This document shows, one piece after another, positions 1,960-8,679 of a stretch of DNA of 64,000 nucleotides. Origin of the DNA: Kiritimatiellia bacterium (lineage in GTDB: Bacteria; Verrucomicrobiota; Kiritimatiellia; PWTM01); contig JAOACR010000021.1 of NCBI GenBank assembly GCA_026417735.1, positions 1 through 64,000 of the forward strand, written 5' to 3'. How positions within the stretch are numbered: position 1 is the first letter of the stretch; the number at the start of each line of letters is the position of its first letter. A program made the translations under genes and the position numbers. The notes beneath the pieces were generated by a model. That model saw only the letters and a program-made list of their open reading frames with translations. It was not told the origin of the DNA and searched no databases.

Positions 1960-2418
1960 ATGAGTGCGAGTGCGTGTGGCGGTGTGCGTTGGATTGACAG
2001 ACTGATTCGGTGGGTGGCGACGGCGCTCATGTGGATGCTGGCGCTGGTGGTGATGGCTGGTGCGGTCGATCTGGCGGCGACGCTCGTTCAGGACCTGTTG
2101 ACGCCGCCGGTGGGCCGGATGGAGGTGGCGGAGCTGCTGAGGGTGCTCGGCCTTTTTCTGGTGGTGCTGATCGCGATCGAGCTGGTGTATGTGGTGCGAT
2201 TGTACCTCGAGGAGCGGCATTTCGATGTGGAGGTCGTGTTGGTGGTTGCGCTGATCGCGATCGCGCGGAAAGTGGTGGTGTTTGATCTGGAACGCAACGA
2301 GCCGTGGCTGCTGCTCGGCATTTCGGCGGTCGTGATTTCGCTGGCGGCGGCGCTGTTTCTTTTGCGATGGTCGCGCCGGTGGGACGCGAAAACGGTCGGC
2401 GGTCAATCGTCTCCCTGA
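1960..2418 (+). CDS. PsiE-like phosphate-starvation-inducible membrane protein
   Basis: A 152-residue protein with four predicted membrane segments (about residues 17-40, 62-82, 92-107 and 118-138). Between segments 2 and 3 it reads IAIELVYVVRLYLEERHFDVEV and then VALIAIARKVVVFD, which is the core of the PsiE family (IELV...YL, AIIAIARKVI..D). PsiE proteins are inner-membrane proteins induced by phosphate starvation in enterobacteria, of unknown function. The start ATG 1960 is preceded by a GGTGGGGG stretch. The gene ends inside the next one if the glycosylase starts at 2367. Its presence near a polyphosphate operon 12 kb away is suggestive but no more. Confidence 0.75.
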   Translation: MSASACGGVRWIDRLIRWVATALMWMLALVVMAGAVDLAATLVQDLLTPPVGRMEVAELLRVLGLFLVVLIAIELVYVVRLYLEERHFDVEVVLVVALIAIARKVVVFDLERNEPWLLLGISAVVISLAAALFLLRWSRRWDAKTVGGQSSP

Positions 2419-2990
2419 AGAGCCCGCCGAAGAGAGGTCGAAGAGCTTCCGCGGGTCCGCGGCTGCGGGCGTTTGGTCCGGTGGCCGGAGGGCGGCCGCG
2501 GGTGCTGGTGCTGGGCTCGATGCCGGGGCCGGCGTCGCTGGCGGCGGGGGAGTACTATGCGCATGCGCGGAACGCGTTCTGGCGGGTGATGGCGCGCGTG
2601 ACGGGGGTGCCGGCCGATGCGCCATACCGGGAGCGGTGTGCGGGTCTGGTGCGGGCGGGCATTGCGTTGTGGGATGTGGTCGCGGAGTGCCGGCGGGCGG
2701 GCAGCGCCGATCACGAGATCCGCCACGACAGTGTGCGTCTGCAGGACGTGGCTGGATGGCTGTGTCGGCATGCGAGCGTGCACACGGTGATGTTCAACGG
2801 AGAATTTGCGGCGCGCATGTTTCGCCGGCATGTGCAGCCGCGTCTGGGCGCGCGCGGTCGGGCGCTGCGGCTGATGCAGCTGCCCTCCACGAGTCCGGCG
2901 CACGCCAGTCGTTCGGAGGCGCAGAAGACGGCGATCTGGCTGGCGGCGATGCGGAGAGCGGGGGTCGCGCCGGTCGCGCGCGCGTGCTAA
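2367..2990 (+). CDS. DNA-deoxyinosine (hypoxanthine-DNA) glycosylase, UDG family 6
   Basis: A base-excision-repair glycosylase, 207 residues from ATG 2367. The core begins with PRVLVLGSMPGPASL, then EYYAHARNAFWRVM, ALWDVVAECRRAGSAD, VMFNGEFAARMF and LMQLPSTSPAHAS. This is the motif order of the hypoxanthine-DNA glycosylase branch of the uracil-DNA glycosylase superfamily (GS.PG..SL, YYAHPRN.FW, LPSTSPA), which removes deaminated adenine from DNA. The start is uncertain: ATG 2367 gives about 40 non-conserved residues and a 52-base overlap with the psiE-like gene, and a later non-ATG start is possible. The next gene begins 22 bases downstream, so these probably share an mRNA. Confidence 0.85.
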   Translation: MVAPVGRENGRRSIVSLKSPPKRGRRASAGPRLRAFGPVAGGRPRVLVLGSMPGPASLAAGEYYAHARNAFWRVMARVTGVPADAPYRERCAGLVRAGIALWDVVAECRRAGSADHEIRHDSVRLQDVAGWLCRHASVHTVMFNGEFAARMFRRHVQPRLGARGRALRLMQLPSTSPAHASRSEAQKTAIWLAAMRRAGVAPVARAC

Positions 2991-3012: not shown

Positions 3013-4023
3013 ATGACGCGACGACATCCGAAGTTCGCGGCGGTGATCGTGAGCGTGCTGGCGGTCGCGCTGTGGGCGGGTGGGGTGCTCGCACAGGCGC
3101 AGGACCTGCGGGGCGAACTGAACCGGCTGCAGACTCGGTTGCAGGCGATGGGCGACCGTGTGATTTCGGAGTCACAATGGTCGCAGTTGATTTCCGATCT
3201 CAACTCGCTGGCGGAGAGCGCGCGCGCGGCCGGCGAGGGCGGGATCGAGGTGCTGGCGGTGGTCGCGCAGGCGCGGGCGTGGGGGGATTTGCGCCGCGAG
3301 CCGGCGCGGGCGGTGTCGCTGTTGCGGGCCGCGCGCGCGCGGCATGGAGCGCAGGCATGGCCGGAGGTGCGGCAGCTGTACCTGACCGAGGCGGAGATGC
3401 TTTCCCGCATCGGCGATGCGGACGCGATTCGCCGGTTGATGTCGGAGTATCGCGCGAGTCCCGCGTACGATCCGCCGGCCTTTGCGTACAGTGCGACGCC
3501 GGATCCGGCGCCGGTGGTGGCGATGGTTCGTCCGCGCTCGCCGCAGACCGAGTCGCCGGTGATGTTGGCGATGCAGAAGTATTTCGACGCGGCGCTCGCG
3601 TCGGCCGGCGCGCGCATTCCGGACTTTGAGCTCACCGACATTGACGGTTTACAGTATTCGCCGGGCTCGATGCGGGGGCGGGTGGTGCTGCTCGACTTCT
3701 GGGTGGCGGGGTCGGTGCCGTACGAGCGCGAGATTCCGTTCCGCATCCGTGCGCGGGAACGGTATGCGGCACAGGGGTTTGAAATTCTCGGCATTTGCCA
3801 GAACCTCGATGCGGCGGCGATCCGGGAGTACATCGGGCGGCATCGAGGGATGAGCTGGCCTCAGGTGGAGGGGCGGGCCGCGCGCAACCTGATTGTACGC
3901 CTCGGCGTGCCGGGCGAAAACGCGAGTTTTCTGCTCGACCGGGAGGGGCGGATCCGGGCACGCAATCTGACCGGTGCGGCGTTGGCGGAGGCGGTGGCCC
4001 GTTTGGTGGCCGAGTCTCCGTGA
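3013..4023 (+). CDS. Exported thioredoxin-fold (TlpA/redoxin-like) protein lacking the CxxC cysteines
   Basis: 336 residues from ATG 3013 (GGGAG nine bases upstream), with a signal peptide ending near VLAQA (residue 29). Residues 30-190 are helical and unassigned. The C-terminal third is a TlpA/AhpC-type fold: IPDFELTDIDG, RGRVVLLDFWVAGSVPYERE, QGFEILGICQN and, near the end, ASFLLDREGRIRARNL. In TlpA-like thiol oxidoreductases the third position reads FWATWCGPC; here both cysteines are replaced (S234 and Y237), so disulfide chemistry should be impossible. The fold may act as a binding or scaffold domain outside the cytoplasm. The stop overlaps the next gene's GTG start by four bases. The fold is clear; the role is unknown. 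Confidence 0.8.
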   Translation: MTRRHPKFAAVIVSVLAVALWAGGVLAQAQDLRGELNRLQTRLQAMGDRVISESQWSQLISDLNSLAESARAAGEGGIEVLAVVAQARAWGDLRREPARAVSLLRAARARHGAQAWPEVRQLYLTEAEMLSRIGDADAIRRLMSEYRASPAYDPPAFAYSATPDPAPVVAMVRPRSPQTESPVMLAMQKYFDAALASAGARIPDFELTDIDGLQYSPGSMRGRVVLLDFWVAGSVPYEREIPFRIRARERYAAQGFEILGICQNLDAAAIREYIGRHRGMSWPQVEGRAARNLIVRLGVPGENASFLLDREGRIRARNLTGAALAEAVARLVAESP

Positions 4024-5348
4024 GGGGTGCCGCCGCGTGCGGCGCATTCGTCGCGTTTGCGGCGGCGGTGAGCTCTGCGGGGTCACCGCCGCTGCGGATC
4101 GCGTGTGTAGGGGATAGCATCACCTTTGGAGCGGGGCTGGCCAGCGCCAGTTTGCAGAGCTATCCGGCGCGACTGGCGGAGCTGTTTCCAACCGGCCGAG
4201 TGATCGTCGGGAACTTTGGCGCGCCAGGTCGTACCCTGCTTCGGGGGGGGGATCTGCCCTATGTGCGCGACGGTGCGTTTCGTGCCGCGATCGAGTTTGC
4301 GCCAGATGCGGTGGTCATTCTGCTGGGTGCCAATGACACGCGCCCGCCGAACCGGGGCCGGCTGGGGGAGTTCAAGCGCGACGCGGCGGATCTCGTGCAG
4401 CGGTTTCAGCGGCTGGCGTCTCGGCCGGTGGTTGTGGTCGCGTTGCCGACGCCGGCGTGGGAGAACCCGCATGGTGTGGACGGCGAGCTGCTGCGGGAAG
4501 AGGTGGTTCTGCGCTGGTGCGAGGTCGCTGCGGAATGCCGCGCGCATGTGGTGGATCTGCATACGCCGCTGCGGTCCGCGCGCAGCCGTTTTCCCGATGG
4601 TGTACATCCGGATGAGCACGGTTCGCTGGCGGTGGCGATGCTGGTTTACGGTGCGCTTCGCTCGCGGCTGTTGAGCAGCGGCCTGCCGGAGAGCGATCGC
4701 GATGCGTTGGGGGGGATGGATTCGCGGTGGGGCGAGCTGTGGCCGTGGGGGGACTACGGCATGCCGAACGTGGCCGCAGCGCTGAAGGGCAACGACTGGC
4801 TGCGGCTTCACCGGGAGCGAGTGGCTGGCGCGGCCGAGCGGGGCGTGCGGCTGCTGCTGGTCGGGGATGCGTGGTTCGAGCCTCGGCACGAACCGGCGCC
4901 GGAGTGGGCGGGGACGCCTGCGGCCTGGATGGGGGTTGCGGGCGACGAGCCGGAACACGTGATGTGGCGATTGCTCGATGGCCTATCCCGCATGCCGGCG
5001 CTGCAGTATGCGGTCGTTCGTCTTTCGTGGTACCGATTGACGAGCGAGCGGCGGGAGCTGGAGTTGGCCGATGCGATTCGGGCGCTGCGGCGGTGTGGGC
5101 GGCCGGGTCTCGAGATCGCGGTGTTGTTGGGACCGTTCGAAACCGAGGCGGATCGTTGGCGCGCGGAGACGGTCTGGGCCCGCTTGGAGGAGGAAGCGCA
5201 ACACCGCCGCACCGGCGCGGATGTGGTCTGGCTGGACCGGGCTGTGCCGGCGCGGAGGGAGGGGGCTGCCGGGACCGCATCTGCGATGGATCGGATGGAG
5301 CTGGTCCGACGATGGTTGGAGAGCCGGATCGGTCGGCCGGTGGAGTGA
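4020..5348 (+). CDS. Exported tandem SGNH/GDSL protein with an inactive second domain
   Basis: 442 residues from GTG 4020, which overlaps the previous stop (GTGA). A short hydrophobic N-terminus is probably a signal peptide. Domain 1 (about 25-215) is a standard SGNH hydrolase: GDSITFG with nucleophile Ser33, an LGANDTR block and DGVHPDE with the catalytic Asp/His pair. Domain 2 (about 240-430) aligns by eye with the PAF-acetylhydrolase-like SGNH type (DWLRLHRERV, RLLLVGDAWF, GVAGDEPEHVMWRLLDG), but the nucleophile position reads GDA (Ala284), and the usual G-T-N block is LSWY. Domain 2 is therefore probably catalytically dead. Domain 1 would hydrolyse esters, for example on polysaccharides or lipids. 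The stop overlaps the next gene by four bases. Confidence 0.82.
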   Translation: MRGAAACGAFVAFAAAVSSAGSPPLRIACVGDSITFGAGLASASLQSYPARLAELFPTGRVIVGNFGAPGRTLLRGGDLPYVRDGAFRAAIEFAPDAVVILLGANDTRPPNRGRLGEFKRDAADLVQRFQRLASRPVVVVALPTPAWENPHGVDGELLREEVVLRWCEVAAECRAHVVDLHTPLRSARSRFPDGVHPDEHGSLAVAMLVYGALRSRLLSSGLPESDRDALGGMDSRWGELWPWGDYGMPNVAAALKGNDWLRLHRERVAGAAERGVRLLLVGDAWFEPRHEPAPEWAGTPAAWMGVAGDEPEHVMWRLLDGLSRMPALQYAVVRLSWYRLTSERRELELADAIRALRRCGRPGLEIAVLLGPFETEADRWRAETVWARLEEEAQHRRTGADVVWLDRAVPARREGAAGTASAMDRMELVRRWLESRIGRPVE

Positions 5349-6637
5349 GCGGTAGCGGGTCGGCCAGCGGGGGTGTTCTGGACGCGGCGCTGGCGGAGGG
5401 CTTTCGAATTGTACTGATTGGCGCGGGTTGGGATTCCACTCGCCGGAAGATGCGCGCGCGGATGGTGCGGCTAGAGGGTGGACGGGTGGCCGCGGACGTG
5501 CGCGGGGAACTGGATGTGTGGAGCGGGGAAAGCGATCTGGCGAGGGCGCTATATGAGGGGCTGATGGATGTCGCCGCGCCGCCGCATCTACTGGTGCTCT
5601 GGGGCGGTGCGGCGAGGTCGCTGCTGGCGCGAGCCGCGACCGCGGCGATGCTCGGCACGTTTCGGGTTCTGGACCTGCGGCGCGCGGTGCTTGTGCTGAG
5701 GCCGGAGTCGCGCGCGCGGGCGGACGGTGAGGCGCTGCTGGTGGCCATGGGTGTCGGTGGGGTGGCCGACGCCGAGTCTCCGATGGATGACCGGGTGATT
5801 GACCTGTTGTGGGCGGTACTGGCGGAGGCGCAGCGGCGGGGCTGGGGGTGGGCTGAGCTGCTGGGCCGGGCCTCGGCGCCGCGATCGCTCGAGGCGACCG
5901 GCGGCGTGGCGCTGGATCCGGACGCGCTCACGGAGCTGCCCGAGGCGCCGGCGGTGTATCGGTTGCTGGATGCGGCGCGTCGGGTTGTTTACATCGGGCA
6001 GACCGGCAATCTGCGGCGGCGGGTCGCCGAGCATTTGCGGGCGACGGACGCGCCGACGCCGAAGACCGTGGAGCTGGGCCGCCGAGTGCGTGCGATCGAA
6101 TATCGGCGGGTCGGGTCGGAGCTCGAGGCGCGGCTGTACGAGGACCGTTGGATTCGCCGGTGGTGCCCACCGCTGAACGTGGCGGTGCGAACACGACGCC
6201 GCCGCGGCGGTCGAGGGGCCGCATGGGCGGTGGTGATTGTGGCCCGGTCGGCGGAGGAGGGGGCGGTGGAAGTGTTTGGCTGGCGGCCGGGGTCGTCGTT
6301 GTGGCAGCTCCGTGTGCGGGAGGGGCGCATGCCGAGGCGGAGGTTGGAGGCATTGTGGGAGGTGCTGACGGGTCGCCGTCGGCGAATGCCGCGGGGCGAC
6401 GGGATCACCGCCTGGGGCCGGATCGGCGCCGAGTTGGCCGCGCGAATGTTTCGTGCGCGCCGCGCGCGATGGATATGGTTGCGGCCGGAATCGTTCCCGG
6501 ATGCGGAGGCGTGGCTGGCGGCGTTCGGCGTGGCGATTCGCGAGGTGAAGGCCGGCCCTCCCGAGGGGGTTGAATATCGCTGGACGGATAGCGAGGAGGT
6601 GCCGGCTGGGCCTCACCGGCACGACGTAACGGGTTGA
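5345..6637 (+). CDS. GIY-YIG nuclease-domain protein with degenerate DnaQ-like N-terminal domain
   Basis: 430 residues from GTG 5345 (GTGA overlap with the previous stop). The middle (about 200-280) is a GIY-YIG nuclease domain of the UvrC/Cho type: LPEAPAVYRLLD, RVVYIGQTGNLRRRV, a Glu in ELEARLYED, and the final CPPLNV. The N-terminal 190 residues follow the layout of the DEDD exonuclease domain fused to GIY-YIG in DnaQ-UvrC-like proteins, but the expected DxE is replaced by IGAG and the later Asp motifs are not apparent, so the exonuclease is probably inactive. The C-terminal 150 residues are Arg-rich and unassigned. A DNA repair or DNA structure-cleaving role is likely from the GIY-YIG domain. 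The exonuclease relationship is inferred from layout only. Confidence 0.75.
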   Translation: MSGSGSASGGVLDAALAEGFRIVLIGAGWDSTRRKMRARMVRLEGGRVAADVRGELDVWSGESDLARALYEGLMDVAAPPHLLVLWGGAARSLLARAATAAMLGTFRVLDLRRAVLVLRPESRARADGEALLVAMGVGGVADAESPMDDRVIDLLWAVLAEAQRRGWGWAELLGRASAPRSLEATGGVALDPDALTELPEAPAVYRLLDAARRVVYIGQTGNLRRRVAEHLRATDAPTPKTVELGRRVRAIEYRRVGSELEARLYEDRWIRRWCPPLNVAVRTRRRRGGRGAAWAVVIVARSAEEGAVEVFGWRPGSSLWQLRVREGRMPRRRLEALWEVLTGRRRRMPRGDGITAWGRIGAELAARMFRARRARWIWLRPESFPDAEAWLAAFGVAIREVKAGPPEGVEYRWTDSEEVPAGPHRHDVTG

Positions 6638-6703: not shown

Positions 6704-7459
6704 ATGACGGATCTGCACAAACTGTTGGAACAGGTGGCGCGAGGGGAGATCTCGCCGGGCGAAGCGGCTGCGGAGCTGAATCGGCGTGTGGAGCTGGGGC
6801 TCGGCTATGCGCGGCTCGACTTGGATCGTCGGCGGCGGTGCGGCGTGCCGGAGGTGGTGTTCGGCCCGGGGAAGACGGTGGAGCAGATTGTGGAAATTGC
6901 GCGACAGCTGCTGGAGCGGGAACGGCACGTCATGGCCAGCCGAGTTTCGGCGGAGCAGGCGCGCGCGTTGTGCGAGGCGCTGCCCGGTGCGGTGTACCAT
7001 TCGGCGGCGAGGTGCGTGACCGCGGATCTGGATCCGCTGCCGCCGCCGCGCGGACGGGTCGCGGTGGTGTCGGGCGGAACGGCGGACTTGCCAGTGGGCG
7101 AGGAAGCGGCGATCACCGCGGAGCGGATGGGCGCGGCGGTTGATCGGATCTGGGATTGCGGTGTGGCGGGCCTGCACCGTTTGCTGCCCCATCTGGAGAC
7201 GCTGCGCCGTGCGAATGCGGTGATCGTCGCGGCGGGGATGGAGGGAGCGCTGCCGTCGGTGGTCGGCGGACTGGTGGACCGGCCGGTGATCGCCGTTCCG
7301 GTCAGCGTTGGCTACGGTGCCCATCTGGGGGGGCTTGCGCCGCTGCTGACAATGCTGAATTCCTGCGTGCCGGGCGTCACGGTCGTGAACGTGGACAACG
7401 GGTTCGGTGCCGGCGTCGCAGCGGGCCTGATCAACCGGCTTGCGGAGAGAGGGGAATGA
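6704..7459 (+). CDS. larB: LarB, nickel-pincer cofactor biosynthesis carboxylase
   Basis: 251 residues, full length for LarB, starting at ATG 6704 after GAGGTGAAGG. Typical blocks are DLDRRRRCGVPEVVFGPGKT near residue 40, VVSGGTADLPVGEEA near 125, and GGLVDRPVIAVPVSVGYG with a VDNGFGAG end. The C-terminal half has the AIR-carboxylase (PurE-like) fold. LarB carboxylates and hydrolyses nicotinic acid adenine dinucleotide to the dicarboxylated mononucleotide that becomes the nickel-pincer cofactor of lactate racemase and related LarA enzymes. It is coupled to larC by an ATGA overlap. LarE and LarA are not in the window. Confidence 0.93.
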   Translation: MTDLHKLLEQVARGEISPGEAAAELNRRVELGLGYARLDLDRRRRCGVPEVVFGPGKTVEQIVEIARQLLERERHVMASRVSAEQARALCEALPGAVYHSAARCVTADLDPLPPPRGRVAVVSGGTADLPVGEEAAITAERMGAAVDRIWDCGVAGLHRLLPHLETLRRANAVIVAAGMEGALPSVVGGLVDRPVIAVPVSVGYGAHLGGLAPLLTMLNSCVPGVTVVNVDNGFGAGVAAGLINRLAERGE

Positions 7460-8679
7460 AGATTTTGCGATGGGATCTGGTCGGGGGGATCTCCGGCGAC
7501 ATTGCGCTTGCGGCGCTGTTGGATCTGGGCGCGGATCGTCGGCGCGTCGAGGCGGCCGTTCGCGCATGTGGTCTGGAGCAGGTGTCGCTAGATGTGGAAG
7601 CGGTGGCCGAGGCAGGACTGGCGGGGCTGAGGGTGGCGGTCCGGGATCGAACACCGGCGGGTCCGCACGCGCATCGGGCCTGGCGGGAGATCCGCGGCTT
7701 GCTCGATCGCGCGCCGCTGTCCGCGCGGGCCCGCGAGCTGGCGCTGCGGGTGTTTTCGCGGCTCGCCGCGGCGGAGGGTCGTGTGCACCGGGTGACCGCG
7801 GACGAGGTGGAGTTTCATGAGATCGGCGCGGCGGACTCGATCGCGGATGTCGTCGGCGCGTGTGTTGCGCTTGAGCTGCTCGGCGTGGAGGCGGTGGAGA
7901 CGGGGCCGTTTCCGCTGGGGCGGGGAGAGGTTCGATGCGCGCACGGCGTCTATCCGCTCCCGGCGCCGGCCGTGATCGAGCTGTTGAAGGGGTGGCCGGT
8001 GAGGATGGTCGAGGAGGAGCTGGAAACCGTCACACCCACCGGGGCGGCGCTGCTCACCGAATGGGCGGAGTCGCTGCCGGCGCGTCGCGGCGAGCGTGTG
8101 ATTCGCGCGGCGGGGCTGGGGTGGGGGTGGCATCGCTTGCGGGGGCGGCCGAATGTGGCGCGCGCAGTGCTGTACGAAATGGTGGGAGACGACGCCGGGT
8201 CGCCGGACGAGTGCCTCGTGCTCGAGACGCAGATGGACGATGTGACCGGCGAGTGGATTGGCGTGCTGGTGGAGCGGCTGCTGTCGGCGGGCGCGCTGGA
8301 TGTGTACACCACGGCGGTGCAGATGAAGAAGCAGAGGCCCGGCACGCTGCTGACGGTGCTTTGCGAGCCCGCGCGCCGGGACGCGATGCTGGAGATGATC
8401 TTCCGGCACAGCCCGACGCTGGGCGTTCGGGAGTACCGGGCGGATCGCGCGGTGCTGGAGCGGCGGCATGTCACCGTGAATACGCGTTGGGGGCCGGTGC
8501 GGGTAAAGCTCGGCGTCTGGAAGGGCGAGGTCGTGACGCGGGCGCCCGAGATGGAGGACTGCATTGCGCGGGGGGATGAGCACCACGTGCCGCCCCGTTG
8601 CGTGTATCTGGAGGCGTTGCGATGCACGCCGATTGCGGCCGATTCGGGGGGACCCAACGAACCTGTGCCGCTGCCATGA
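7456..8679 (+). CDS. larC: LarC, nickel insertion enzyme for the nickel-pincer cofactor
   Basis: 407 residues from ATG 7456, overlapping larB by four bases. The start reads LRWDLVGGISGDIALAALLD, then EVEFHEIGAADSIADVVG and PLGRGEVRCAHGVYPLPAPA; the C-terminal half has ETQMDDVTGEWIGVL and KKQRPGTLLTVLC. These are the LarC blocks. LarC is a CTP-dependent cyclometallase that inserts Ni into the pincer precursor. In lactobacilli larC is read through a programmed frameshift (LarC1/LarC2); here both parts are in one uninterrupted frame. The stop overlaps the ATG of the next gene (ATGA at 8676-8679), tying cofactor synthesis to a secreted beta-helix protein. Confidence 0.93.
   Translation: MKILRWDLVGGISGDIALAALLDLGADRRRVEAAVRACGLEQVSLDVEAVAEAGLAGLRVAVRDRTPAGPHAHRAWREIRGLLDRAPLSARARELALRVFSRLAAAEGRVHRVTADEVEFHEIGAADSIADVVGACVALELLGVEAVETGPFPLGRGEVRCAHGVYPLPAPAVIELLKGWPVRMVEEELETVTPTGAALLTEWAESLPARRGERVIRAAGLGWGWHRLRGRPNVARAVLYEMVGDDAGSPDECLVLETQMDDVTGEWIGVLVERLLSAGALDVYTTAVQMKKQRPGTLLTVLCEPARRDAMLEMIFRHSPTLGVREYRADRAVLERRHVTVNTRWGPVRVKLGVWKGEVVTRAPEMEDCIARGDEHHVPPRCVYLEALRCTPIAADSGGPNEPVPLP

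What the first reader, a model, noticed from the sequence alone, without database searches (positions are those of the whole stretch)
3013..6637. Three coupled genes, each with an apparently inactivated catalytic fold
Genes at 3013-4023, 4020-5348 and 5345-6637 are joined by two GTGA overlaps, so they should be made together. The first is a thioredoxin fold with both CxxC cysteines replaced (S234, Y237). The second has an active SGNH domain followed by an SGNH domain with GDA in place of GDS. The third has a GIY-YIG nuclease domain behind a DnaQ-like domain lacking the DEDD acids. Finding an active partner next to a dead copy in two genes, plus a cysteine-free redoxin, suggests scaffold or ligand-sensing roles and a shared function. 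The upstream DNA glycosylase and PsiE-like genes may belong to the same unit.
Basis: partly seen in the sequence, partly recalled or inferred. Interest (0 to 1): 0.62.

Follow-up and report, generated by a model that had tools for sequence, protein, structure and literature searches.

The report
Operon of three partly inactivated proteins
Three overlapping bacterial genes really do each carry a domain that has lost its catalytic residues, but two of these losses are ancient features of separate gene families and the third is a dispensable remnant, so the trio is better read as an ordinary small operon than as one machine built from dead enzymes.

Summary
Genes A (3013-4023), B (4020-5348) and C (5345-6637) overlap by two GTGA junctions. 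A is a TlpA/ResA-type redoxin with S234 and Y237 in place of the CxxC cysteines. B is an intact SGNH esterase followed by a degenerate PAF-acetylhydrolase-like SGNH domain (GDA for GDS). C has a UvrC/Cho-type GIY-YIG domain behind an RNase H-like domain without conserved DEDD acids. Calling that domain DnaQ-like rests on weak fold evidence.

The shared-function interpretation is not supported. A belongs to a class-wide family: 25 of 25 distinct full-length homologues from six taxonomic families lack both cysteines, usually with different neighbours. C belongs to a separate family: 12 members in six taxonomic families, all without DEDD acids, and unlinked to A outside four same-genus species and one other genus. 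B is absent between A and C in G008, and its dead domain is gone in G003. A and B look exported; C does not.

A core PsiE-glycosylase-A-(B)-C is a real conserved neighbourhood with retained 4-base overlaps, in up to five species. Most likely it is an operon of independent genes: two old non-catalytic domains under purifying selection, plus one vestige.

The parts
1960..2418 (+). PsiE-family membrane protein, upstream member of the conserved neighbourhood
   Evidence: Pfam PsiE 9.3e-27; next to A in G001, G002, G003 and G008
2415..2990 (+). DNA-deoxyinosine glycosylase (UDG superfamily); exact start uncertain, the ORF is open from GTG 2304
   Evidence: TIGR04274 1.2e-39, above its cut-off; upstream of A in G002, G003 and G008 and in G051 of another taxonomic family
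3013..4023 (+). Gene A: N-terminal hydrophobic segment, helical region about 30-195, cysteine-free TlpA-like redoxin domain 198-319
   Evidence: dN/dS about 0.09 against G003
3712..3723 (+). S234-V-P-Y237, replacing the CxxC of TlpA/ResA
   Evidence: alignment with CxxC relatives and 25 cysteine-free homologues
4020..5348 (+). Gene B: tandem SGNH protein, GTG start overlapping the stop of A
4095..4643 (+). B domain 1: intact AxeA1-type SGNH esterase (GDS, GN, GAND, DGVH)
   Evidence: dN/dS about 0.10
4791..5345 (+). B domain 2: degenerate PAF-acetylhydrolase-like SGNH domain; GDA at 4863-4871
   Evidence: degenerate in G001 and G002, lost in G003
5345..6637 (+). Gene C: GIY-YIG protein, GTG start overlapping the stop of B
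5372..5884 (+). C N-domain: RNase H-like fold, no conserved DEDD acids
5951..6157 (+). C GIY-YIG domain with the catalytic Arg (225/226), Glu266 and Asn278 positions invariant

Best explanation
This is a small translationally coupled operon of functionally separate genes. A is an exported member of an old class-wide family of cysteine-free TlpA-like proteins. It cannot do CxxC thiol chemistry and most likely acts as a non-redox binding or chaperone-like domain (inferred). B is an exported SGNH esterase in which only the first domain works; the second is a vestige of a PAF-acetylhydrolase-like domain on its way out. C is a cytoplasmic Cho/UvrC-type GIY-YIG nicking enzyme. Its N-terminal RNase H-like domain has lost, or never had, exonuclease acids and probably serves to bind or position DNA (inferred). 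Shown here: domain identities, missing residues, their conservation or loss, linkage and purifying selection. Inferred: cell location, binding roles, and that the 4-base overlaps reflect co-expression only.
For: A homologues from six families lack both cysteines and keep the domain; outside the window's family they sit next to YdjM, RmlD or LpxI genes instead of B and C. C homologues from six families lack DEDD acids; outside the window's family none has A, B, PsiE or the glycosylase nearby. In G006, of the window's own family, A and C lie on different contigs. dN/dS against G003 is about 0.09 for the A redoxin domain, 0.24 for the C N-domain, 0.11 for GIY-YIG and 0.10 for B domain 1, with LarB about 0.08. 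B is missing in G008, where A and C overlap directly by GTGA; the second SGNH domain is lost in G003. A and B have hydrophobic N-termini; C does not. larB/larC adjoin C only in the window and G003; in G002 and G008 LarB lies on other contigs.
Against: PsiE-glycosylase-A-C stays together between two genera whose A proteins are about 60% identical and whose flanking genes differ, which is more than drift would predict and leaves room for a functional link. No signal-peptide predictor was available. dS is near saturation (1.0-2.2), so the dN/dS values are rough.
Confidence: 0.66

Rival explanations
1. The three genes make one functional unit in which dead domains act as scaffold or ligand sensors.
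For: 4-base overlaps kept in G002 and G003, and directly between A and C in G008; conserved core PsiE-glycosylase-A-C across two genera.
Against: A and C exist unlinked in many genomes with the same residues missing; B is optional and its dead domain dispensable; likely different compartments.
Confidence: 0.12
2. A chance neighbourhood of decaying genes.
For: The second SGNH domain of B is degenerate in three species and lost in a fourth.
Against: A is as constrained as LarB, and C keeps open frames and low dN/dS in all three parts; the missing residues of A and C are ancestral, shared across taxonomic families.
Confidence: 0.07
3. C and the upstream glycosylase form a DNA-repair pair (base removal followed by GIY-YIG incision), with A and B carried along.
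For: Deoxyinosine glycosylase and a Cho-type nuclease lie in the same operon in the window, G002, G003 and G008; exonuclease-GIY-YIG proteins have been proposed to act in repair (PMC1564403).
Against: No glycosylase was found next to C in the unlinked C homologues or at the G001 locus.
Confidence: 0.15

Closest known systems
TlpA/ResA/DsbE thiol-disulfide oxidoreductases (best PDB match 2lrn)
   Same: Redoxin fold over 198-319, exported form expected, same insertion pattern
   Different: Both cysteines missing; cis-Pro position not Pro in most members (Pro kept in G007 and in G004b/G005); long N-terminal helical region
AxeA1-type SGNH acetylxylan esterase
   Same: Domain 1 of B with all four SGNH blocks
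   Different: Below the family's curated cut-off (132 of 700 bits; only the SGNH part matches) and followed by a dead second SGNH domain
PAF-acetylhydrolase Ib-like SGNH hydrolases
   Same: Second domain of B around GDx and the GxxGDxxxHVxWRL segment
   Different: Ser to Ala, GTNN and the terminal DxxH segment lost
Exonuclease-GIY-YIG fusions of Actinobacteria and Betaproteobacteria (PRK07883; Cho homologues with an N-terminal ExoIII domain, PMC1564403)
   Same: Domain order and spacing; best NCBIfam match in GIY-YIG
   Different: No DEDD acids, no detectable sequence match of the exonuclease core, unknown C-terminal domain instead of UvrBb or Cho-CTD

Membership tests
TlpA/ResA thiol-disulfide oxidoreductase (A) | CxxC active site | tested here: not met
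   S234/Y237 in the window; no Cys at either position in 25 of 25 distinct full-length homologues
TlpA/ResA thiol-disulfide oxidoreductase (A) | Redoxin fold by profile | tested here: met
   Redoxin 33 bits against a cut-off of 26.6 and AhpC-TSA 30.2 against 26; 2lrn 9e-19
TlpA/ResA thiol-disulfide oxidoreductase (A) | Export to the periplasm | tested here: inconclusive
   Hydrophobic N-terminus ending AQAQ; no predictor available
SGNH hydrolase (B domain 1) | GDS, GN, GxND, DxxH | tested here: met
   All present and conserved in four species
SGNH hydrolase (B domain 2) | Catalytic Ser and DxxH | tested here: not met
   GDA284; GTNN replaced; no DxxH
Exonuclease-GIY-YIG (PRK07883/Cho-like) (C) | GIY-YIG catalytic residues | tested here: met
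   Tyr205, Tyr216, Arg225/226, Glu266, Asn278 invariant in 7 sequences
Exonuclease-GIY-YIG (PRK07883/Cho-like) (C) | DEDD catalytic acids | tested here: not met
   No conserved acids at the expected places in 12 homologues
Exonuclease-GIY-YIG (PRK07883/Cho-like) (C) | Homologous DnaQ-type exonuclease domain | tested here: inconclusive
   RNase H-like model with a weak DinG match; no Pfam or hhalign match; the end of the domain aligns to PRK07883 models in G209
Exonuclease-GIY-YIG (PRK07883/Cho-like) (C) | UvrBb or Cho C-terminal domain | tested here: inconclusive
   NCBIfam UvrC and Cho matches cover the GIY-YIG part, with nothing recognised over residues 315-430
Conserved three-gene unit | A-B-C gene order beyond one genus | tested here: not met
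   A-B-C in four species of one genus; A-C without B in one other genus; unlinked elsewhere

The most novel reading that the evidence does not exclude
A is an undescribed, class-wide family of cysteine-free TlpA-like envelope proteins with a conserved non-redox task (neighbours YdjM, RmlD and LpxI suggest cell-envelope work). C is an undescribed branch of GIY-YIG repair nucleases in which an exonuclease domain was turned into a DNA-binding module. Their coupling in this operon would then reflect a real envelope-stress to DNA-repair link.
Probability: 0.1. Interest if true: 0.6.

Novelty: new variant of a known kind. Interest (0 to 1): 0.3.

Why it matters
It separates two things that look alike in raw sequence: inactivation that is an old, selected property of a family (A and C) and inactivation that is a remnant (B domain 2). 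If the A family is real pseudo-thioredoxin machinery, it gives a testable case of a redox fold kept for something other than redox. C gives a testable case of a repair nuclease with a non-catalytic RNase H-like partner domain.

Tried and rejected
Linking larB/larC to the unit: they adjoin C only in the window and G003; LarB lies on other contigs in G002 and G008. A viral origin of C: no relative in viral contigs, and no strong structural match in BFVD. Confirming DnaQ homology by Pfam and hhalign: failed. A class-wide NF005906 scan mostly returned matches over the GIY-YIG/UvrC part of the model and few exonuclease-part matches, so no intact exonuclease-GIY-YIG relative was identified. Paper searches found nothing on this operon.

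Full report
What is there. The window is contig C21 of a 3.09-Mb assembly. ORFs A 3013-4023, B 4020-5348 and C 5345-6637 overlap at CCGTGAGG and GAGTGAGC. A matches Redoxin and AhpC-TSA and ResA-type NCBIfam models. B matches Lipase_GDSL_2 and AxeA1 over its first half. C matches GIY-YIG and, best of all NCBIfam models, the PRK07883 exonuclease-GIY-YIG model over its GIY-YIG part. Upstream are PsiE and a TIGR04274 glycosylase; downstream are LarB and LarC.

Gene order. PsiE, A, B and C are kept in G001, G002 and G003, all of the window's genus, with the glycosylase in G002 and G003 but not found at the G001 locus. In G008, another genus of the same family, PsiE-glycosylase-A-C is kept without B, and A and C overlap directly by GTGA. 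Overlaps are 4 bases at A/B in G002 and G003 and at B/C in G002; in G003 the C start lies within the last bases of B. In G006, A and C lie on different contigs; G004, G005 and G007 have A but only UvrC-like matches to C.

Gene A. The full-length family was found in the window's family and in f3, f7, f8, f10 and f22, plus a partial match in f21. In 25 of 25 distinct full-length sequences both CxxC positions are free of cysteine. The second position is usually W, sometimes Y, H or T; the first varies (S, A, W, R, L, F). The cis-Pro position is not Pro in most, though G007 and G004b/G005 keep Pro. TlpA proteins with CxxC from other families match only the redoxin part. The redoxin domain has dN/dS about 0.09 against G003, like LarB. 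Outside the window's family A is followed, usually directly, by a YdjM gene in 6 of 11 neighbourhoods examined, in f3, f7, f10 and f22, with RmlD or LpxI close by in eight. In G005, and in G004 on a contig carrying identical A and SRAP proteins, an SRAP gene follows A; a second A in G004 also has an SRAP gene nearby. So the missing cysteines predate any link to B and C.

Gene B. Domain 1 has intact SGNH blocks and dN/dS about 0.10. Domain 2 resembles PAF-acetylhydrolase Ib and an intact SGNH paralogue elsewhere in the same genome that has GDSIT and GTNN, but has GDA and lacks the later blocks. It is degenerate in G001 and G002 and gone in G003, and B as a whole is missing at the G008 locus. 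This part is best read as a vestige.

Gene C. Twelve full-length or near-full-length members come from f1, f8, f27, f65, f76 and f77. None outside f1 has A, B, PsiE or the glycosylase in the stretches held, some of which are short contigs. The GIY-YIG catalytic residues are kept; the window and G003 have Q where most have K after YIG. The N-domain models well (pLDDT 85.3, pTM 0.83) and is RNase H-like, with weak matches to RNase HI, SPT6, the UvrC C-terminal half and DinG, the last being the best full-length match at TMq 0.44. No Pfam or hhalign evidence ties it to DnaQ, but domain order, spacing and, in G209, the alignment of the end of the domain to PRK07883 models make a degenerate DEDD origin plausible. 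A 2006 survey describes exonuclease-GIY-YIG Cho homologues in Mycobacteria and Betaproteobacteria and cites the proposal that the exonuclease digests from the incision (PMC1564403). C would be a variant without that activity. N-domain dN/dS is about 0.24 and GIY-YIG about 0.11; dS is near saturation, so these are rough.

Interpretation. The inference from three dead folds to one shared function does not follow. Two of the three are ancestral traits of families that usually live apart, the third is an optional remnant, and the N-termini suggest different compartments. What remains is a real conserved operon core whose reason is unknown, with a possible glycosylase-nuclease repair pair as the most testable functional link.

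Limits. Genomes behind G handles are metagenome-assembled or single-cell assemblies of varying completeness; absence at a locus may reflect assembly gaps (G001 is 68% complete). No signal-peptide tool and no complex prediction were available.

Noticed in passing
L115:6593-8147, L116:6888-8434, L117:7960-9543, L118:6351-8424, L120:6745-8532, L121:6977-8445: Outside the window's family, A-family genes lie just upstream of a YdjM (PF04307) membrane protein (one ORF between them in L118), with RmlD or LpxI genes close by in most, a cell-envelope neighbourhood kept in f3, f7, f10 and f22.
   Followed up: partly
L044:7587-9317 and L043:11026-12471: G005 and G004 carry A and SRAP proteins that are identical between the two assemblies, which suggests contamination or a shared strain in one of them.
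   Followed up: no
L115:8404-9030: In G051 (f7) a UDG-superfamily gene lies directly upstream of A, as in the window, so the glycosylase-A neighbourhood may be older than the link to B and C.
   Followed up: partly
window 6704-8679: LarB and LarC (nickel pincer cofactor) follow C in the window and G003; LarB lies on other contigs in G002 and G008. LarA and LarE were not looked for.
   Followed up: partly
L045:5473-6435 (reverse-complement coordinates of the locus): An intact PAF-acetylhydrolase-like SGNH protein in the window's genome is the likely kind of source for the dead second domain of B.
   Followed up: yes
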